Shown: piece by piece, positions 6,714 to 35,989 of the stretch
Layout: each line of letters opens with the position of its first letter
How positions within the stretch are numbered: position 1 is the stretch's first letter
Source of the DNA: Phocoena phocoena
Lineage: Eukaryota > Chordata > Mammalia > Artiodactyla > Phocoenidae
Reading direction: 5' to 3'
Assembly: GCF_963924675.1 (NCBI RefSeq)
Contig: NC_089222.1
Span: 108,763,316-108,827,315 of the forward strand
Length of the DNA: 64,000 nucleotides
Translations under genes and position numbers: made by a program
Notes under the pieces: model-generated
The model's database searches: none
What the model saw: the letters and a program-made list of their open reading frames with translations, nothing else
What the model was told of the DNA's origin: nothing

Positions 6714-8000
6714 GAATTTTTTAAGACATTACTTTTTTAGAGCAGTACAGGTTTACAACAAAATTGAGAAGGAGGTACACAGATTTCCATACATCTCTTG
6801 CCCAAGCACATACATAGTTTCCCCATTATCAACATCACTCATGAGAATGGTACATTTTTTTTTTACCAGAGATGGACCCACCTTTACACATTGTAATCAC
6901 CTAAAGTCCATAGTTTACCTTAGGGTTCACTCTTTACATTGCACATTCTGTGGATTTGGACAAATATATGTGATATATGGCCATAATTATAATATTTTTT
7001 GTCATAAAAATACTGTGTGCTCCCTCTATTCATCTGTCCCATCCCTAGCGACCATTAATATTTGATTGTATAGTTTTGCCTTTTCCAGAATGTCATACAG
7101 TTGTAATCATATAGCCTTTTCAGGTTAGTTTCTTTCACTTACTAATATTCATTTAAAGCTCCTCCATGTGGGACTTCTCTGGTGGTCCAGTGGGTAAGAC
7201 TCCATGCTCCCAATGCAGGGGGCCCAGGTTTGATCCCTGGTTGGGGAACTAGATCCCACATGCATGCCACAACTAACAGTTTGCATGCCGCAACTAAGAG
7301 TCCTCATGCAGCAACTAAAAAGTCCGCATGCCGCACCTAAGGTCTCACATGCTGCAATGGAGATCCTGCATGTGCGGCAAATAAAACCTGGTGCAGCTAA
7401 ATAAATAATAAAGTTCCTCCATGTCTTTTCATGGCTTGATGGCTCATTTCATTTTAGTGCTGAATAATATGCCATTGTTTGGATATATATCACAGTTTAT
7501 CCATTCAACTACTAAAGGACATCTTGGTTGCTGCCAAGTTTTGGCAATTATGAATAAATTATGAATAAAGTTGCTATAAACATCTGTGTGCAGGTTTTTA
7601 TGTGGACATTAGTTTTCCACTCCTTTGGGAAAATATCATGGAGCATAATTGCTGGATCAGATAGTAAGAGTATACTTAGTTTTATAAGAAGCCACCGAAC
7701 TGTCTTCCAAAGTGGCTGTATCATTTTGCTTTCCCACCAGCAATGTATGCTAATTCCTCTTGCTCCACATCCTCACCAGCATTTGGTGTTATCAGTGTTC
7801 CAGATTTTGGCCATTCTAATAGGTGTGTAGTGGTATCTCATTGTTGTTTAATTTGCATTTCCCTGATGATGTATGATGTGGAACACATTTTCATATGCTT
7901 ATTTGCCATCTGTATATCTTCTTTGGTGAAGTGTCTGTTAAGGTCTTTGGTCAATTTTTAAAATCAGGTTGTTTGTTTTCTTATTGTGAATTTGTTTTTA
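6714..8000 (-). mobile_element. Old L1 fragment (3' end), 5' truncated
   Basis: The + strand shows the reverse complement of an L1 3' UTR and the end of ORF2: 'agagcagtacaggtttacaa', 'ccattgtttggatatatatc', 'gttgctataaacatctgtgt', 'ccaaagtggctgtatcattt' and 'tggccattctaataggtgtg'. The L1 3' end lies at the left. A SINE is inserted at 7,170-7,409. All ORFs here are remnants on the wrong strand or broken. A similar minus-strand fragment lies at 18,938-20,560. Confidence 0.85.
7170..7409 (+). mobile_element. CHR-type tRNA-derived SINE
   Basis: Begins 'gggacttctctggtggtcca' and carries the 'caatgcagggggcccaggtt' and 'gttggggaactagatcccac' blocks, then tandem 'gccgcaactaag'-like units and an A-rich tail. 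It is flanked by 15-bp direct repeats, 'aaagctcctccatgt' (7,155-7,169) and 'aaagttcctccatgt' (7,410-7,424). They show that it inserted into the surrounding old L1. Confidence 0.93.
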
Positions 8001-13827: not shown

Positions 13828-14010
13828 TTGCCAGATAAAATACAAAAAATGCAGTTAAATTTAAATTTCAGATGAAAAATGCTTCATATTTTAGTATAAG
13901 TATGTCCCAAATATTACATGGAATATGTTTATACTAAAAGCATTTTCAGTATTTATCTGAAATTCAAATTGAACTGGTGTCCTGTGTTTTTATTCGCTGT
14001 ATCTGGCACA
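13828..14010. mobile_element. Palindromic MITE (DNA transposon fossil)
   Basis: The two halves are near reverse complements. The left arm has 'ttgccagataaaatacaaa', 'gttaaatttaaatttcagat' and 'ttttagtataagtatgtccc'. The right arm has 'atatgtttatactaaaagca', 'tatctgaaattcaaattgaa' and 'gtatctggca'. The whole 183 bp could fold as one hairpin with a centre near 13,916. I recognise it as an old palindromic non-autonomous element but cannot give a secure name. Confidence 0.7.
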
Positions 14011-29462: not shown

Positions 29463-30334
29463 ATGTACCAGATAAGGGAACAAGATAAAACCCCAGAAAA
29501 ACAACTAAATGAAGTGGAGATAGGCAACCTTCCAGAAAAAGAATTCAGAATAATGATAGTGAAGATGATCCAGGACCTCGGAAAAAGAAAGGAGGCAAAG
29601 ATCAAAAAGATGCAAGAAATGTTTAACAAAGACCTAGAAGAATTAAAGAACAAACAAACAGAGATGAACAATACAATAACAGAAATGAAAACTACACTAA
29701 AAGGAATCAATAGCAGAATAACTGAGGGAGAAGAATGGATAAGTGACCTGGAAGACAGAGTGGTGGATTTCACTACCATGGAACAAAATAAAGAAAAAAG
29801 AATGAAAATAAATGAAGACAGCCTAAGAGACCTCTGGGACAACATTAAATGCAACAATATTCACATTATAGGGGTCCCAGAAGGAGAAGAGAGAGGGAAG
29901 GACCAGAAAAAATACTTGAAGAGATGATAGACGAAAATTTCCATAACATGGGAAAGGAAATAGCCATCCAAGTCCAGGAAGCGCAGCAAGTCCCATACAG
30001 ATTAAACCCAAGGAGAAACACGCCAAGACACATAGTAATCAAAGACAAAGAAAAATTATTGAAAGCAGCAAGGGAAAAACGACAAATAACATACAAGGGA
30101 ACTCCTATAAGGTTAACAGCTGAATTCTCAGCAGAAACTCTACAAGCCAGAAGGGAGTGGCATGATATACTTAAAGTGATGAAAGGGAAGAACCTACAAC
30201 CAAGATTACTCTACCTGGCAAGGATCTCATTCAGATTTGATGGAGAAATCAAAAGCTTTACACACAAGCAAAAGCTAAGAGAATTCAGCACCACCAAACC
30301 AGCTCTACAACAAATGCTAAAGGAACTTCTCTAA
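29463..30334 (+). pseudogene. L1 ORF1 (RNA-binding chaperone), one frameshift
   Basis: L1 ORF1 proteins are trimeric RNA chaperones that coat the element's RNA. The first part (29,463-29,927, 154 codons) gives the Lys/Glu-rich coiled coil and the start of the RRM ('NIHIIGVPEGEER'). The rest continues in another frame to 30,334 and gives the C-terminal domain ('LQARREWHDILKVMKGKNLQ'). The two frames overlap at 29,849-29,927, so a single indel in this overlap separates them. The overall length, about 290 codons, is near the normal for artiodactyl ORF1. Confidence 0.9.
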
Positions 30335-30389
30335 GTGAGAAACACAAGAGAAGAAAAGGATCTACAAAAACAAACCCAAAACAATTAAG

Positions 30390-33300
30390 AAAATAGTCAT
30401 AGGAACATACATATCAATAATTACCTTAAACGTGAATGGATTAAATGTTCCAACCAACAGACACAGTCTTGCCGAATGGATACAAAAACAAGAGCCATAT
30501 ATAGGTTGTCTACAAGAGACCCACTTCAGACCTAGGGACACATACAGACTGAAAGTGAGGGGATGGAAAAAGATATTCCATGAAAATGGAAATCAAAAGA
30601 AAGCTGGAGTAGCTCTACTTATATCAGATAGAATAGACTTTAAAATAAATAATGTTACAAGAGACAAGGAAGGACACTACATAATGATCAAGGGATCAAT
30701 CCAAGAAGAATTATAACAATTATAAATATATATGCACCCAACATAGGAGCATCTCAATACATAAGGCAACTGCTAACATCTATAAAACAGCAAATCGACA
30801 GTAACACAATATTAGTGGGGAACTTTAACACCTCACTTACATCAATGGACAGATCATCCAAAATGAAAATAAATAAGGAAACACAAGCTTTAAATGACAC
30901 AATAGACCAGATAGATTTAAGTGATATTTATAGGACATTCCATCCAAAAACAGAAGATTACACTTTTTTCTCAGGTGTGCATGGAACATTCTCCAGGATA
31001 CATAACATCTTGGGTCACAAATCAAGCCTCAGTAAATTTAAGAAAATTGAAATAATATCAAGCATCTTTTCTGACCACAACACTATGAGATTAGAAATCA
31101 ATTACAGGAAAAAAATGTAAAAAACACAAACACATGGAGGCTAAACAATACATTACTAAATAACCAAGAGATCACTGAAGAAATCAAAGAGGAAATCAAA
31201 AATACCTAGAGACAAATGCCAATGAAAACACAATGATCCAAAACCTATGGGATGCAGCAAAAGCAGTTCTAAGAGGGAAGTTTATAGCTATACAAGCCTA
31301 CCTCAAGAAACAAGAAATATCTCAAATAAAAAATCTAACCTTACACCTAAAGGAACTAGAGTGAGAAGAACAGACAAAACCCAAAGTTAGCAGAAGGAAA
31401 GAAATCATAAAGATCAGAGCAGAAATAAATGAAATAGAAACAAAGAAAACAATAACAAAGATCAATAAAACTAAAAGCTGATTCTTTGAGAAGATAAACA
31501 AAATTGATAAACCATTAGCCAGACTCATCAAGAAAAAGAGGGAGAGTACTCAAATCAATAAAATTAGAAATGAAAAAGGTGAAGTTACAACAGACAGCAC
31601 AGAAATACAAAGCATCCTAAGAGACTACTACAAGCAACTCTATGCCAATAAAATGGACAACCTGGAAGAAATGGACAAATTCTTAGAATGTTATAACCTT
31701 CCAAGACTGAACCATGAAGAAATAGAAAACGTGAACAGACCAATCAGAAGTAATGAAATTGAAACTGTGATTTAAAATCTTCCAACAAACAAAAGTCTAG
31801 GACCAGATGGCTTCACAGGTGAATTCTATCAAACATTTAGAGAAGAGCTAACACCCATCCTTCTCAAACTCTTTCCAAAAATTTTCAGAGAAAGGAACAC
31901 TCCCAAACTCATTCTATGAGGCCACCATCACCCTGATACCAAAACTAGACAAAGATACTACAAAAAAAGAAAATTACAGCCCAATATCACTGATGAATAT
32001 AGATGCAAAAATTCTCAACAAAATACTAGCAAACAGAATCCAACAACACATTAAAAGCATCATGCACCATGATTAAGTGGGATTTATCCCAGGGATGCAA
32101 GGATTCTTCAATATATGCAAATCAATCGATGTGATACACCATATTAAACAATTTAAAGAATTAAAACCATATAATCATCTCAACAGATGCAGGAAAAGCT
32201 TTTGACAAAATTCAACACTCATTTATATTAAAAACTCTCCAGAAAGTGGGCATAGGGGGAACCTACCTCAACATAATGAAGGCCATATATGACAAACCCA
32301 TAGAAAAATCATTCTCAATGGGGAAAAACTGAAAGCACTTCCTCTAAGATCAGGAACAAGACAAGGATGTCCACTCTCACCACTATTCTTCAGCATAGTC
32401 TTGGAAGTCCTAACCATGGCAATCAGAGAAGAAAAAGAAATAAAAGGAATACAAATTGGAAAAGAAGAAGTAAAGCTGTCACTGTTTGCAGATGACATGA
32501 TACTATACATAGGGAATCCTAAAAATGCCACCAGAAAACTACTAGAGCTAACCCATGAATTTGGTAAAGTTGTAGGATACAAAATTAATGCACAGAAATC
32601 TATTGCATTCCTATACCCTAATGAAGAAAAATCTGAAAGAGAAATGAAGGAAGCACTCCCATTTACCATTGCAACAAAAGAATAAAATACCTCGGAATAA
32701 ACTTACCTAGGGAGACAAAAGACCTGTATGCAGAAAACTATAAGACACTGATGAAACAAATTAAAGATGATACAAGTAGATGGAGAGATATACCATGTTC
32801 TTAGATGGGAAGAATCAACATTGTGAAAATGACTATGCTACCCAAAGAAATCTACAGATTCAATGCAATCCCTATCAAATTACCAATGGAATTTTTACAG
32901 AAGTAGAACAAAAAATCTTAAAATTTGTATGGTGGCACAAAAGATCCAGAATAGCCAGCCAAAGCAATCTTGAGGGAAATAAATGGAGCTGGAGGAATCA
33001 CACTCCCTGACTTCAGTCTATACTATGAAGCTACAGTAATCAAGACAATATGGTACTGGCACAAAAACAGAAACATAGATCAATAGAACATGGTAAAAAG
33101 CCCAGTGATAAACCCACACACCTATGGTCAACTAATCTATGACAAAGGAGGCAAATATATACAATGGAGAAAAGACAGTCTCTTCAATAAGTGGTGCTGG
33201 GAAAACTGAACAGCTACATGTAAAATAATGAAATTAGAACACTCCCTAACACGATACACAGAAATAAACTCAAAATGGATTAGATACCTAAATGTAAGAC

Positions 33301-34210
33301 CAGACTCTATAATACTCTTAGTGGAAAACATAGGAAGAACACTCTGTGACATAAATCACAGCAAGATTTTTTTTGATCCACCTCCTAGAGTACTGGAAAT
33401 AAAAACAAAAATAAACAAATGGGACCTAATGAAACTTCAAAGCTTTTGCACAACAAAGGAGACCATAAACAAGATGAAAAGACAACCCTCGAATGGGAGA
33501 AAATATTTGCAAACGAATCAATGGACAAAGGATTAATCTCCAAAATATATAAGCAGCTTATGCAGCTCAATATTAAAGAAACAAACAACCCAATCCAAAA
33601 ATGGGCAGAAGACCTAAATAGACATTTCACCAAAGAAGACATACAGATGGCCTAGAAGCACATGAAAAACTGCTCAACATCACTAATAATTAGAAAAATG
33701 CAAATCAAACTTACAATGAGGTGTCACCTCACACCAGTTAGAATGGGCATCATCAGAAAATCTACAAACAATAAATGCTGGAAAGGGTGTGGAGAAAAGG
33801 GAACCTTCTTGCACTGTTGGTGGGAATGTAAATTGATACAGCCACTAGGGAGAACAGTATGGAGGTTCTTTTAAAAACTAAAAGTAGAATTACCATATGA
33901 TCCTGCAATTCCATTACTGGGCATATACCCAGAGAAAACCATAATTCAAAAAGACACATGTACCCCAATGTTCATTACAGCACTATTTACAATAGCCAGG
34001 TCATGGAAGCAACCTAACTGCCCATCAACAGATGAATGGATAAAGAAGATGTGGTACACATATACAATGGAATATTACTCAGCCATAAAAAGGAACGAAA
34101 TTGAGTCATTTGTTGAGACGTGGATGGATCTAGAGACTGTCATACAGAGTGAAGTAAGTCAGAAAGAGAAAAACAAATATTGTATATTAACACATGTTTG
34201 TGGAACCTAG
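30390..34210 (+). pseudogene. L1 ORF2 (endonuclease-reverse transcriptase), broken
   Basis: Endonuclease pieces lie at 30,432-30,716 ('YIGCLQETHFRPRDTYRLKV') and 30,815-31,120. The second contains 'GNFNTSL' where active L1s have GDFNTPL, so the catalytic Asp is lost, while the SDH motif survives ('FSDHNTMRLEI'). The reverse transcriptase FADD motif is intact at 32,484-32,495. The C-terminal region (33,228-34,210) includes a zinc-knuckle-like '[20 protein letters not shown]' and ends at the stop at 34,210. Several stops and frameshifts divide the reading frame. Confidence 0.92.
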
Positions 34211-34415
34211 AAAAATGTTACAGATGAACTGTTTTGCAGGGCAGAAGTTGACACACAGATGTAGAGAACAAATGTATGGACACCAAGGGGGGGAAACTGT
34301 GGTGGGGTGGGGATTGTGGTGTGCTGAATTGGGCGATTGGGATTGACATGTATACACTGATTTGTATAAAATTGATGACTAATAAGAACCTGCTGTATTA
34401 AAAAAAAGGATAATT

Positions 34416-34631
34416 TACCATGATCAGGTGGTATTATCCCTGGGATGCAAGGATGGTTCAACATACACAAACCAATCAATGTGTTATATCACGTTAATAG
34501 AGTGAAAGAAATAATCATGGAATCATTTCAATAGATGAAGAAAAAGCATCTCACAAAATTCAACATTCATTCATGATAAAAAAAAGGAACAACTCAACAA
34601 ATGAAGGCATCCTTTTAATTTGAAAATTTTA
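34416..34631 (+). mobile_element. Old L1, inverted 5' part, resumed
   Basis: Continues the L1 interrupted at 29,348: 'taccatgatcaggtggtatt', 'gggatgcaaggatggttcaa' and 'caaaattcaacattcattca'. Its last L1-like words ('aactcaacaaatgaaggcat', to about 34,610) meet the ORF2 position at which the antisense part begins near 28,310. This is what a twin-priming break predicts. Confidence 0.85.
34626..34631 (+). repeat. Target site duplication (left) of class II LTR
   Basis: Sequence atttta, repeated exactly at 35,984-35,989. A 6-bp duplication is typical of class II (betaretrovirus-like) integrations. Confidence 0.9.
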
Positions 34632-34719
34632 TGTCGGGAGCCATATAAGAAGTGCCTTTGAGTCTCAGCACGGACGAGACCCATAGTGCCTAGCAAAGCT
34701 GGTACTATCAGGTACAAAT

Positions 34720-35244
34720 ATGGAGAAGCAAAGCTCTCCTCTGTGTGGTTCCCCTTGTTTTCCCCTGGTTTTGCTTAAAGTGATTTTTATAGGATTACTA
34801 TTAATGTTAGGAAATATTCCCAGTGCCGACGGAGGGTTTAGGGAAAAACCCCAACTTAGGGTAAAACCAAAAAAGACTCCGGCTCCCCCAATGACTACAC
34901 CCGAAATCCCCACTCCCAGGCCAGGACATTGGGTGCAGGGAAACACAACAGGAGCATTTGTGTGGCAAGAGCTTACGTTAGAAGAAAAGCTAGATGAACT
35001 ATGGCCCCCCTGGGGAGTAATAGATATGCTGGGAAATATTTGGGTAAGGTGGCGAGGAGGATTTATGCTACGTTGGGTGTATTCAAAGCTGGATGAAGTA
35101 GGCTACATGGCAAGCTTATACAAGTTACATTGCTCTTTGTGCAGAAATGCTTATAAAGGACAAATTATATATTGTAAGTATTTTGCAAAGGAATTTGCTA
35201 ATAGGTTTAAGGTAGAATGTCCACCCCCAAAGCCTCCCAAATAA
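34720..35244 (+). CDS. LTR-encoded 174-aa putative membrane protein, function unknown
   Basis: The longest uninterrupted ORF in the window, wholly inside the U3 of the solo LTR. The ATG has A at -3 and G at +4, and an in-frame TAG lies about 40 nt upstream, so this start is the natural one. Visible features: a short N-terminus with two Cys, a hydrophobic segment at residues 14-33 (signal peptide or anchor), a basic Pro-rich stretch (about 41-70), one N-glycosylation sequon at N75, a Trp-rich amphipathic part (about 95-120, six Trp in all from 95), four Cys after residue 135 (138, 141, 152, 167) and a Pro-Lys tail. Position and anchor recall the superantigen ORF of MMTV LTRs, but this is about half as long and I see no sequence similarity that I could defend. 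It could also be an unrelated accessory protein of the parent virus. Confidence 0.5.
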   Translation: MEKQSSPLCGSPCFPLVLLKVIFIGLLLMLGNIPSADGGFREKPQLRVKPKKTPAPPMTTPEIPTPRPGHWVQGNTTGAFVWQELTLEEKLDELWPPWGVIDMLGNIWVRWRGGFMLRWVYSKLDEVGYMASLYKLHCSLCRNAYKGQIIYCKYFAKEFANRFKVECPPPKPPK

Positions 35245-35323
35245 TTATAAGGAAAAATGTGCGATGTCTGAAGGATAACGGTGAACGTGTAAAGCCTGTG
35301 GGAGAGAATTTTTATTACTGTAT

Positions 35324-35554
35324 GGGTTTGTAATTGTTAAGAGAAGAATATGCTTAAGTTTTGGGTTTATAATTGTTAAGAGAAGAATATGCTTAAGTTT
35401 TGGGTTTGTAATTGTTAAGAGAAGAATGTACTTAAGTTTTGGGTTTGTAATTGTTAAGAGAAGAATGTACTTAAGTTTTGGGTTTGTAATTGTTAAGAGA
35501 AGAATGCTTAAGTTTTGGGTTTGTAATTGTTAAGAGAAGAATGTGCTTAAGTTT
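35324..35554 (+). repeat. Six 39-bp tandem repeats in LTR U3
   Basis: Copies start at 35,324, 35,363, 35,402, 35,441, 35,480 and 35,517. The unit begins 'gggtttgtaattgttaagag' and continues 'aagaatgtacttaagtttt'. The period is exactly 39 except for copy five, which lacks 2 bp. Copies differ by only a few bases, so the array expanded recently relative to the LTR. Its place upstream of the TATA box suggests an enhancer array. Confidence 0.95.
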
Positions 35555-35852
35555 GTACCTTGATTAATGGCCTGATTGAATAGAATGTGCAAATACAAGA
35601 ACATCTGCTTTTAAGAAAGGTGAAGAAACCGCAAACAGAATTCCAGACCTAGATGTGACCAAGATATACCTAACCACAGGGGATGAAAGAGACCACAGGA
35701 GATAAGAGGATTACCTGATCATAAAACCTGCCTAACCTGCTGATATAATCTTTTGATGTAAATGACCTTTGGTTTTACTGTTGTGTACCTTTATTTTGTG
35801 GCTTTGGTATGAGAACTAGAATGTTAAGATTGAAAGTGAGATTGCCTCACAG

Positions 35853-35859
35853 TATAAAA
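35853..35859 (+). promoter_or_regulatory. LTR TATA box
   Basis: 'tataaaa' in 'agtataaaaagcttcgg', about 130 bp before the LTR end, followed by a GC-richer stretch. Expected cap site about 25-30 bp downstream. Confidence 0.75.
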
Positions 35860-35876
35860 AGCTTCGGAATTGTAAC

Positions 35877-35882
35877 AATAAA
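35877..35882 (+). terminator. LTR polyadenylation signal AATAAA
   Basis: Only 17 bp after the TATA box, so it lies at or just before the expected cap site. This implies a very short R region and means that transcripts from the 5' LTR would lack or barely include the signal, as in MMTV-like viruses. Confidence 0.7.
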
Positions 35883-35983
35883 TTGGCAGATCCTTGCATC
35901 CTCTGAGGTGTCTTGCGTTCTGTCCACGCCGACTCCGTCTCCCCTTCGGGAGAAACCTGTTCTGCTGGGGCTGGTCCCCGGCA

Positions 35984-35989
35984 ATTTTA
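35984..35989 (+). repeat. Target site duplication (right) of class II LTR
   Basis: Sequence atttta, identical to 34,626-34,631. Confidence 0.9.

What the first reader, a model, noticed from the sequence alone, without database searches (positions are those of the whole stretch)
34632..35983. Solo class II LTR that carries its own intact 174-codon ORF in U3
Seen: TG...CA ends, identical 6-bp target duplications (atttta), a 1,352-bp length, and one ORF of 174 codons lying entirely upstream of the TATA box. It is the longest ORF in a window where even the L1 ORFs are broken. The ATG has A at -3 and G at +4. Known: among well-studied retroviruses, MMTV has a comparable plan, with an LTR of about 1.3 kb whose U3 encodes the superantigen. 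Inferred: the parent virus may have had an LTR-encoded accessory membrane protein, perhaps sag-like in role though not in sequence. A solo LTR that keeps the ORF intact is either young or preserved.
Basis: partly seen in the sequence, partly recalled or inferred. Interest (0 to 1): 0.8.

Follow-up and report, generated by a model that had tools for sequence, protein, structure and literature searches.

The report
Retroviral LTR carrying a conserved gene
A lone retroviral control region in a mammalian genome carries an intact small gene of unknown function whose protein has diverged but intact relatives elsewhere, so it is probably a lost virus's extra protein rather than a chance reading frame.

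Summary
A 1,352-bp LTR (34632-35983) has TG...CA ends, exact 6-bp target duplications and a 174-codon ATG ORF (34720-35244) wholly inside U3, upstream of TATAAA and AATAAA. By length alone it is unusual: 4 of 2,000 shuffled LTRs reach 174 codons. It belongs to a protein family: three close relatives (81-98% identical) and a distant one, P0004, 46% identical over 86% of the query. One-step replacements are conservative beyond neutral expectation in the two more diverged relatives, though weakly or not in the fuller counts. A hydrophobic N-terminus, one sequon and three cysteines are shared with P0004. Pfam, NCBIfam, PHROGs and PDB gave only chance hits. Best reading: a U3-encoded accessory protein of an extinct MMTV/EqERV-like betaretrovirus, probably entering the secretory pathway; like Sag in position, no similarity found; immune role only inferred. 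Here the ORF lies upstream of its own promoter and is probably silent; preservation by the host has no support. Genomic copies, proviruses and dN/dS could not be examined: the own-genome search did not complete (16 calls).

The parts
34626..34631 (.). 5' target-site duplication ATTTTA
34632..35983 (+). solo LTR, 1,352 bp, TG...CA
   Evidence: no second copy elsewhere in the window
34720..35244 (+). 174-codon ORF inside U3 (LTR positions 89-613), family with P0001-P0004
34756..34812 (+). hydrophobic segment of the ORF product (residues 13-31), signal peptide or membrane anchor
   Evidence: top 19-residue hydropathy 2.51; no window above 1.2 that starts beyond residue 45
34942..34950 (+). codons of the NTT N-glycosylation sequon (residues 75-77), present also in P0001, P0002, P0003 and P0004
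35323..35554 (+). tandem array in U3, 39-bp unit, 6.0 copies, 94% matches; enhancer-like repeat (inferred)
35853..35858 (+). TATA box TATAAA (LTR position 1222)
35877..35882 (+). polyadenylation signal AATAAA (LTR position 1246), 24 bp after the TATA box, implying a short R (inferred)
35984..35989 (.). 3' target-site duplication ATTTTA

Best explanation
A solo LTR of an extinct or endogenised betaretrovirus with the long MMTV/EqERV-type LTR, whose U3 encoded an accessory protein of about 174 residues. In the provirus the gene would be read from the 3' LTR copy, on a spliced or internally started viral mRNA (inferred, by analogy to MMTV sag). The product has an N-terminal hydrophobic segment, so it probably enters the secretory pathway, is N-glycosylated at NTT and carries three shared cysteines in a C-terminal domain. 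It most likely modified the infected host cell or its immune signalling, as Sag and Nef do from the same U3 position (inferred). Shown: LTR structure, intact ORF, protein family, conservative one-step replacements. Inferred: betaretroviral parent, expression route, topology, function. In the present locus the ORF lies upstream of its own TATA box, so it is probably a fossil that is not expressed by this LTR.
For: LTR ends and 6-bp duplication. Layout close to horse EqERV-beta1: LTR 1,361 nt, TATA 1217-1224, poly(A) motif 1239-1244 (PMC3185775, passages) against 1,352, 1222 and 1246 here. Relatives; P0004 71/155 identical, 103/155 positive, 2 gap columns. Among differences reachable by one base change, 28 of 48 to P0004 are BLOSUM-positive against 28-31% expected (p 1e-5 to 9e-5) and 9 of 14 to P0003 (p 0.006-0.01). 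No stop in P0004 despite 83 replacements, for which 5.9-6.7 nonsense changes would be expected neutrally.
Against: The genomic place of P0001-P0004 was not seen, so that they too lie in LTRs is inferred from short longest contigs (1,261; 720; 4,914; 1,869 bp). The database lists predicted ORFs, so intactness of relatives is biased, and an alignment made by score leans towards positive pairs. Over all 83 differences to P0004 the excess of conservative ones is weak (32, p 0.03-0.09); P0001 shows none (4 of 11, p 0.37-0.43) and P0002 has only 2 differences. P0003 lacks both ends of the ORF, possibly a broken copy. Structure models are poor (mean pLDDT 43 and 51) and the fold search of the second gave nothing usable.
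Confidence: 0.7

Rival explanations
1. A very divergent MMTV-type superantigen (sag), homologous but beyond sequence recognition.
For: Same U3 position; sag-like ORFs were found in LTRs of 20 mammal species, and 490 of 527 shortlisted contigs looked like solo LTRs (PMC4667437, section 4 part 1 and section 10 part 1).
Against: No Pfam match for any of the five proteins at E up to 10 (window protein and P0001-P0004), except one chance FGE-sulfatase hit at 0.13; 174 aa against 320 for MMTV Sag (length from PMC3621094). Direct alignment to Sag was not made.
Confidence: 0.1
2. A fragment of an envelope gene (signal peptide plus start of SU) carried into U3 by recombination, now or formerly a separate secreted protein.
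For: Signal-peptide-like N-terminus followed by a sequon and a tryptophan- and cysteine-bearing domain.
Against: No Pfam envelope family matched; the ORF starts after an in-frame stop inside the LTR, so it is not a run-on from env.
Confidence: 0.12
3. A chance ORF in a young repeat family, open only because copies are recent.
For: 4 of 2,000 shuffled LTRs do as well, and a genome holds many LTR families; the closest relatives differ little (P0002, 2 of 110 residues).
Against: 46%-identical intact relative with conservative one-step replacements.
Confidence: 0.05
4. A host gene exapted from the LTR and preserved by selection in this animal.
For: ORF intact at this locus.
Against: ORF lies upstream of the LTR's own promoter; no expression data were available; intactness is equally explained by a young insertion.
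Confidence: 0.03

Closest known systems
MMTV LTR and its sag gene
   Same: LTR near 1.3 kb, ORF in U3 ahead of the promoter, N-terminal hydrophobic segment (Sag topology recalled)
   Different: Product about half as long, no similarity detected through Pfam, cleavable signal peptide as likely as a type II anchor; superantigen activity untested
EqERV-beta1 of the horse (PMC3185775, abstract and passages)
   Same: LTR length (1,361 against 1,352) and TATA/poly(A) positions nearly the same
   Different: Authors report no significant reading frame downstream of env; 227 LTR copies reported there, copy number here unknown
Bat PvERV-betaB (PMC3621094, passages)
   Same: Long type B LTR (1,265 bp) with an ORF in the 3' LTR that tBLASTn did not relate to MMTV Sag
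Primate lentiviral nef
   Same: Accessory gene in the 5' third of the LTR (PMC2664473, passages)
   Different: Other genus; Nef begins ahead of the LTR and has no signal peptide (recalled)
HML LTR ORFs (PMC2664473, passages)
   Same: Long ORFs in betaretrovirus-like LTR consensuses; the HML8 one clearly longer than random
   Different: Antisense except one in HML4, none starting with methionine, not similar to each other

Membership tests
Class II (betaretroviral) LTR | TG...CA ends and 6-bp target duplication | tested here: met
   6 bp also occurs in deltaretroviruses (recalled)
Class II (betaretroviral) LTR | long U3 with TATA followed closely by AATAAA | tested here: met
   spacing close to EqERV-beta1; in deltaretroviruses AATAAA precedes TATA
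Class II (betaretroviral) LTR | lysine-tRNA primer site and betaretroviral pol in a linked provirus | not testable with these tools
   solo LTR; own-genome search unanswered (16 calls)
MMTV Sag | sequence similarity to Sag | tested here: inconclusive
   no Pfam match; presence of a Sag model in that library is recalled; no direct alignment
MMTV Sag | gene in U3, upstream of the promoter | tested here: met
MMTV Sag | length near 320 aa | tested here: not met
   174 aa
MMTV Sag | MHC II and T-cell receptor binding | not testable with these tools
   needs experiment
Lentiviral Nef | similarity to Nef | tested here: inconclusive
   no Pfam or PDB match; that both libraries hold Nef is recalled; no direct alignment
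Retroviral Env | similarity to envelope families | tested here: inconclusive
   no Pfam match, but betaretroviral SU is thinly covered there (recalled)

The most novel reading that the evidence does not exclude
An undescribed family of U3-encoded retroviral accessory glycoproteins, neither Sag nor Nef, was carried by at least two diverged betaretrovirus lineages and acted on the host through the secretory pathway; solo LTRs keep its fossil record.
Probability: 0.45. Interest if true: 0.75.

Novelty: new variant of a known kind. Interest (0 to 1): 0.55.

Why it matters
Genes inside an LTR are rare: in the passages seen here, sag and nef are the established ones, with some unproven ORFs in HML and foamy virus LTRs (PMC2664473). 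A further, apparently unrelated family would show that long betaretroviral U3 regions repeatedly gain accessory genes, and offers through solo LTRs a fossil record of how vanished viruses dealt with mammalian hosts.

Tried and rejected
Family searches with the ORF product or its relatives: Pfam, NCBIfam, PHROGs and PDB gave nothing beyond chance. NCBIfam and PHROGs saw the window protein only. One search gave 7 parvovirus capsid rows at E 1-1.3 and one FGE-sulfatase row at 0.13, both taken as chance. Scans of viral contigs and prokaryote genome contigs, and tblastn against plasmids and phages, found no relative; these collections are not mammalian, so the misses say little. Two structure predictions were too weak to use; the one fold search, on the second, gave 15 rows, none at E 0.001 or better. 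RNA folding of 35880-35983 was not significant (z -1.16, 27 of 200 shuffles as good). Composition and bacterial-type promoter scans were not used. A run-on from env was rejected, a chance ORF largely.

The three protein searches see only proteins of 0.55 to 1.75 times the query's length that share short words with it; 9, 7,995 (capped) and 118 candidates were scored.

P0001 differs from the window protein at 11 of 170 aligned residues, all within residues 9-53 (none of 100,000 random placements was as confined). Taken as a mosaic copy or a relaxed signal region; not resolved.

Print: eight searches (open-licence PMC only) listed no paper whose title or abstract opening describes this ORF. Lists were cut: 30 of 40, 25 of 257, 3 of 3, 20 of 25, 2 of 2, 3 of 3, 10 of 31 and 1 of 1 shown. 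Subscription journals are mostly missing.

Papers, what I saw: PMC4667437 abstract, sections 3 and 19, and part 1 of 2 of sections 4 and 10; PMC3185775, PMC3621094, PMC2664473 and PMC8877266 passages only; PMC8297934 passages and section 9; others only as search listings.

Full report
What is there. The window holds one LTR at 34632-35983, 1,352 bp, with TG...CA ends and an exact ATTTTA duplication on both sides. No second copy of the LTR or of its ORF product lies in the window (only 26-base matches at E 0.88 to the tandem repeat, and tblastn E 3.8 or worse). Both duplications sit directly at its ends, so it is a solo LTR. The left flank is L1 sequence: an L1 3' end that stops near 34400, next to a fragment (34403-34582) alike to two other stretches of the window at 76-77% (the naming as L1 is by my reading and by the domains).

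Anatomy. From 5' to 3': the 174-codon ORF at LTR positions 89-613; a 39-bp tandem array of 6.0 copies at 692-923; TATAAA at 1222; AATAAA at 1246. The distance of 24 bp from TATA to the poly(A) signal implies a short R. This is close to the horse betaretrovirus EqERV-beta1: LTR 1,361 nt, TATA 1217-1224, poly(A) motif 1239-1244 (PMC3185775, abstract and passages). In deltaretroviruses, by contrast, AATAAA comes before TATA (PMC2664473, passages). So the class II label is reasonable, but no internal gene was available to test it.

Is the ORF real? By length alone it is unusual but not conclusive: 4 of 2,000 shuffled LTRs and 1 of 200 shuffled windows reach 174 codons. The protein searches weigh more. 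The first gave 3 proteins at E up to 1 out of 9 candidates: P0001 (170 aa, 91%), P0002 (110 aa, 98%, partial), P0003 (108 aa, 81%, partial). A profile search added P0004, 184 aa, E 1e-28, 46% over 86%, with 7,995 candidates scored. A last profile search with P0004 and the window protein gave the same 4 of 118 candidates. Window and P0004 align over 155 columns with 71 identities, 103 positives and 2 gap columns. A neutral frame with 83 replacements should have met about 6 nonsense changes; P0004 has none, with the caution that the database holds predicted ORFs only. A test free of that bias is the kind of replacement: among one-step differences, 28 of 48 to P0004 and 9 of 14 to P0003 are BLOSUM-positive, against 28-31% expected. 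P0001 (4 of 10) and P0002 (2 of 2) are uninformative, and over all 83 differences to P0004 the signal is weak (32 positive, p 0.03-0.09). Alignment by score leans slightly the same way. I conclude that the frame was probably under protein-level constraint, most likely while the virus was replicating.

What the protein looks like. One strongly hydrophobic stretch near the N-terminus (residues 13-31) and none later; a sequon NTT present in all four relatives; three cysteines shared with P0004 (window 138, 152, 167). In P0004 the hydrophobic stretch begins at residue 1-2, which fits a cleaved signal peptide better than a type II anchor, although its true start was not checked. Basic residues follow the stretch, so topology is not settled. 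Blocks shared with P0004 include PTPRP, WV.GNTTG.F, TLEEKL..LWPPWGV and YK.Q.IYC.YF...F.NRF.V.CPP. Pfam, NCBIfam, PHROGs and PDB gave no match beyond chance (chance rows told under tried and rejected). AlphaFold models were poor (mean pLDDT 43 and 51), and the fold search of the second gave no usable match, so no fold is claimed.

How it most likely worked. In a provirus the 5' copy of such an ORF lies upstream of the start of transcription, and only the 3' copy is inside viral RNA; like sag it would need a spliced mRNA or an internal promoter. PMC4667437 (section 3) reports several sag promoters, one inside the 3' U3. The first in-frame stop upstream of the ATG is within the LTR (34684-34686), so the product is not an extension of env. 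A function on the host cell or on immune signalling is inferred from the hydrophobic N-terminus, the sequon and the position. At the present locus the LTR promoter lies downstream of the ORF, so expression would need another, upstream promoter; 'preserved for the host' has no support.

Compared with what is known. MMTV sag and lentiviral nef are the established U3 genes. HML LTR consensuses have long ORFs, most near the limit expected by chance but HML8 clearly beyond it, antisense except one, and without methionine starts (PMC2664473, passages). PvERV-betaB of a fruit bat has a 1,265-bp LTR with a 123-codon ORF unlike Sag (PMC3621094, passages), yet PMC4667437 reports about 300 sag-like hits in Pteropus (section 4), so that ORF's status is open. 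EqERV-beta1 is reported to have none. I could not compare the present ORF with any of these sequences. It works like sag in layout; membership in Sag is not established and length speaks against it.

Limits. The own-genome search did not complete (16 identical requests).

Noticed in passing
window 35323-35554: Tandem array of a 39-bp unit, 6.0 copies, 94% matches, between ORF and TATA box; one spacing is 37 instead of 39. Its copy number may vary among LTR copies and could serve as a subfamily marker.
   Followed up: partly
P0001 against window 34720-35241: All 11 replacements, and one 4-residue gap, fall within residues 9-53; the rest of the protein is identical. Suggests a mosaic LTR or relaxed signal region.
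   Followed up: partly
window 34665-34946, minus strand: A 93-aa antisense ORF (GTG start) overlaps the first part of the U3 ORF.
   Followed up: no
window 13889-13940, minus strand: mir-1302 family match just above Rfam's gathering score (63.4 against 62).
   Followed up: no
window 7176-7249: ARAGORN calls tRNA-Trp, but five further partial copies of the stretch 7151-7460 lie in the window, so it is probably the head of a tRNA-derived SINE.
   Followed up: partly
window 29463-34397: Sense L1 sequence with ORF1 and ORF2 domains in separate short ORFs (the reverse transcriptase match is just under Pfam's cut-off), ending in A-rich sequence beside a further L1-like fragment at 34403-34582.
   Followed up: partly
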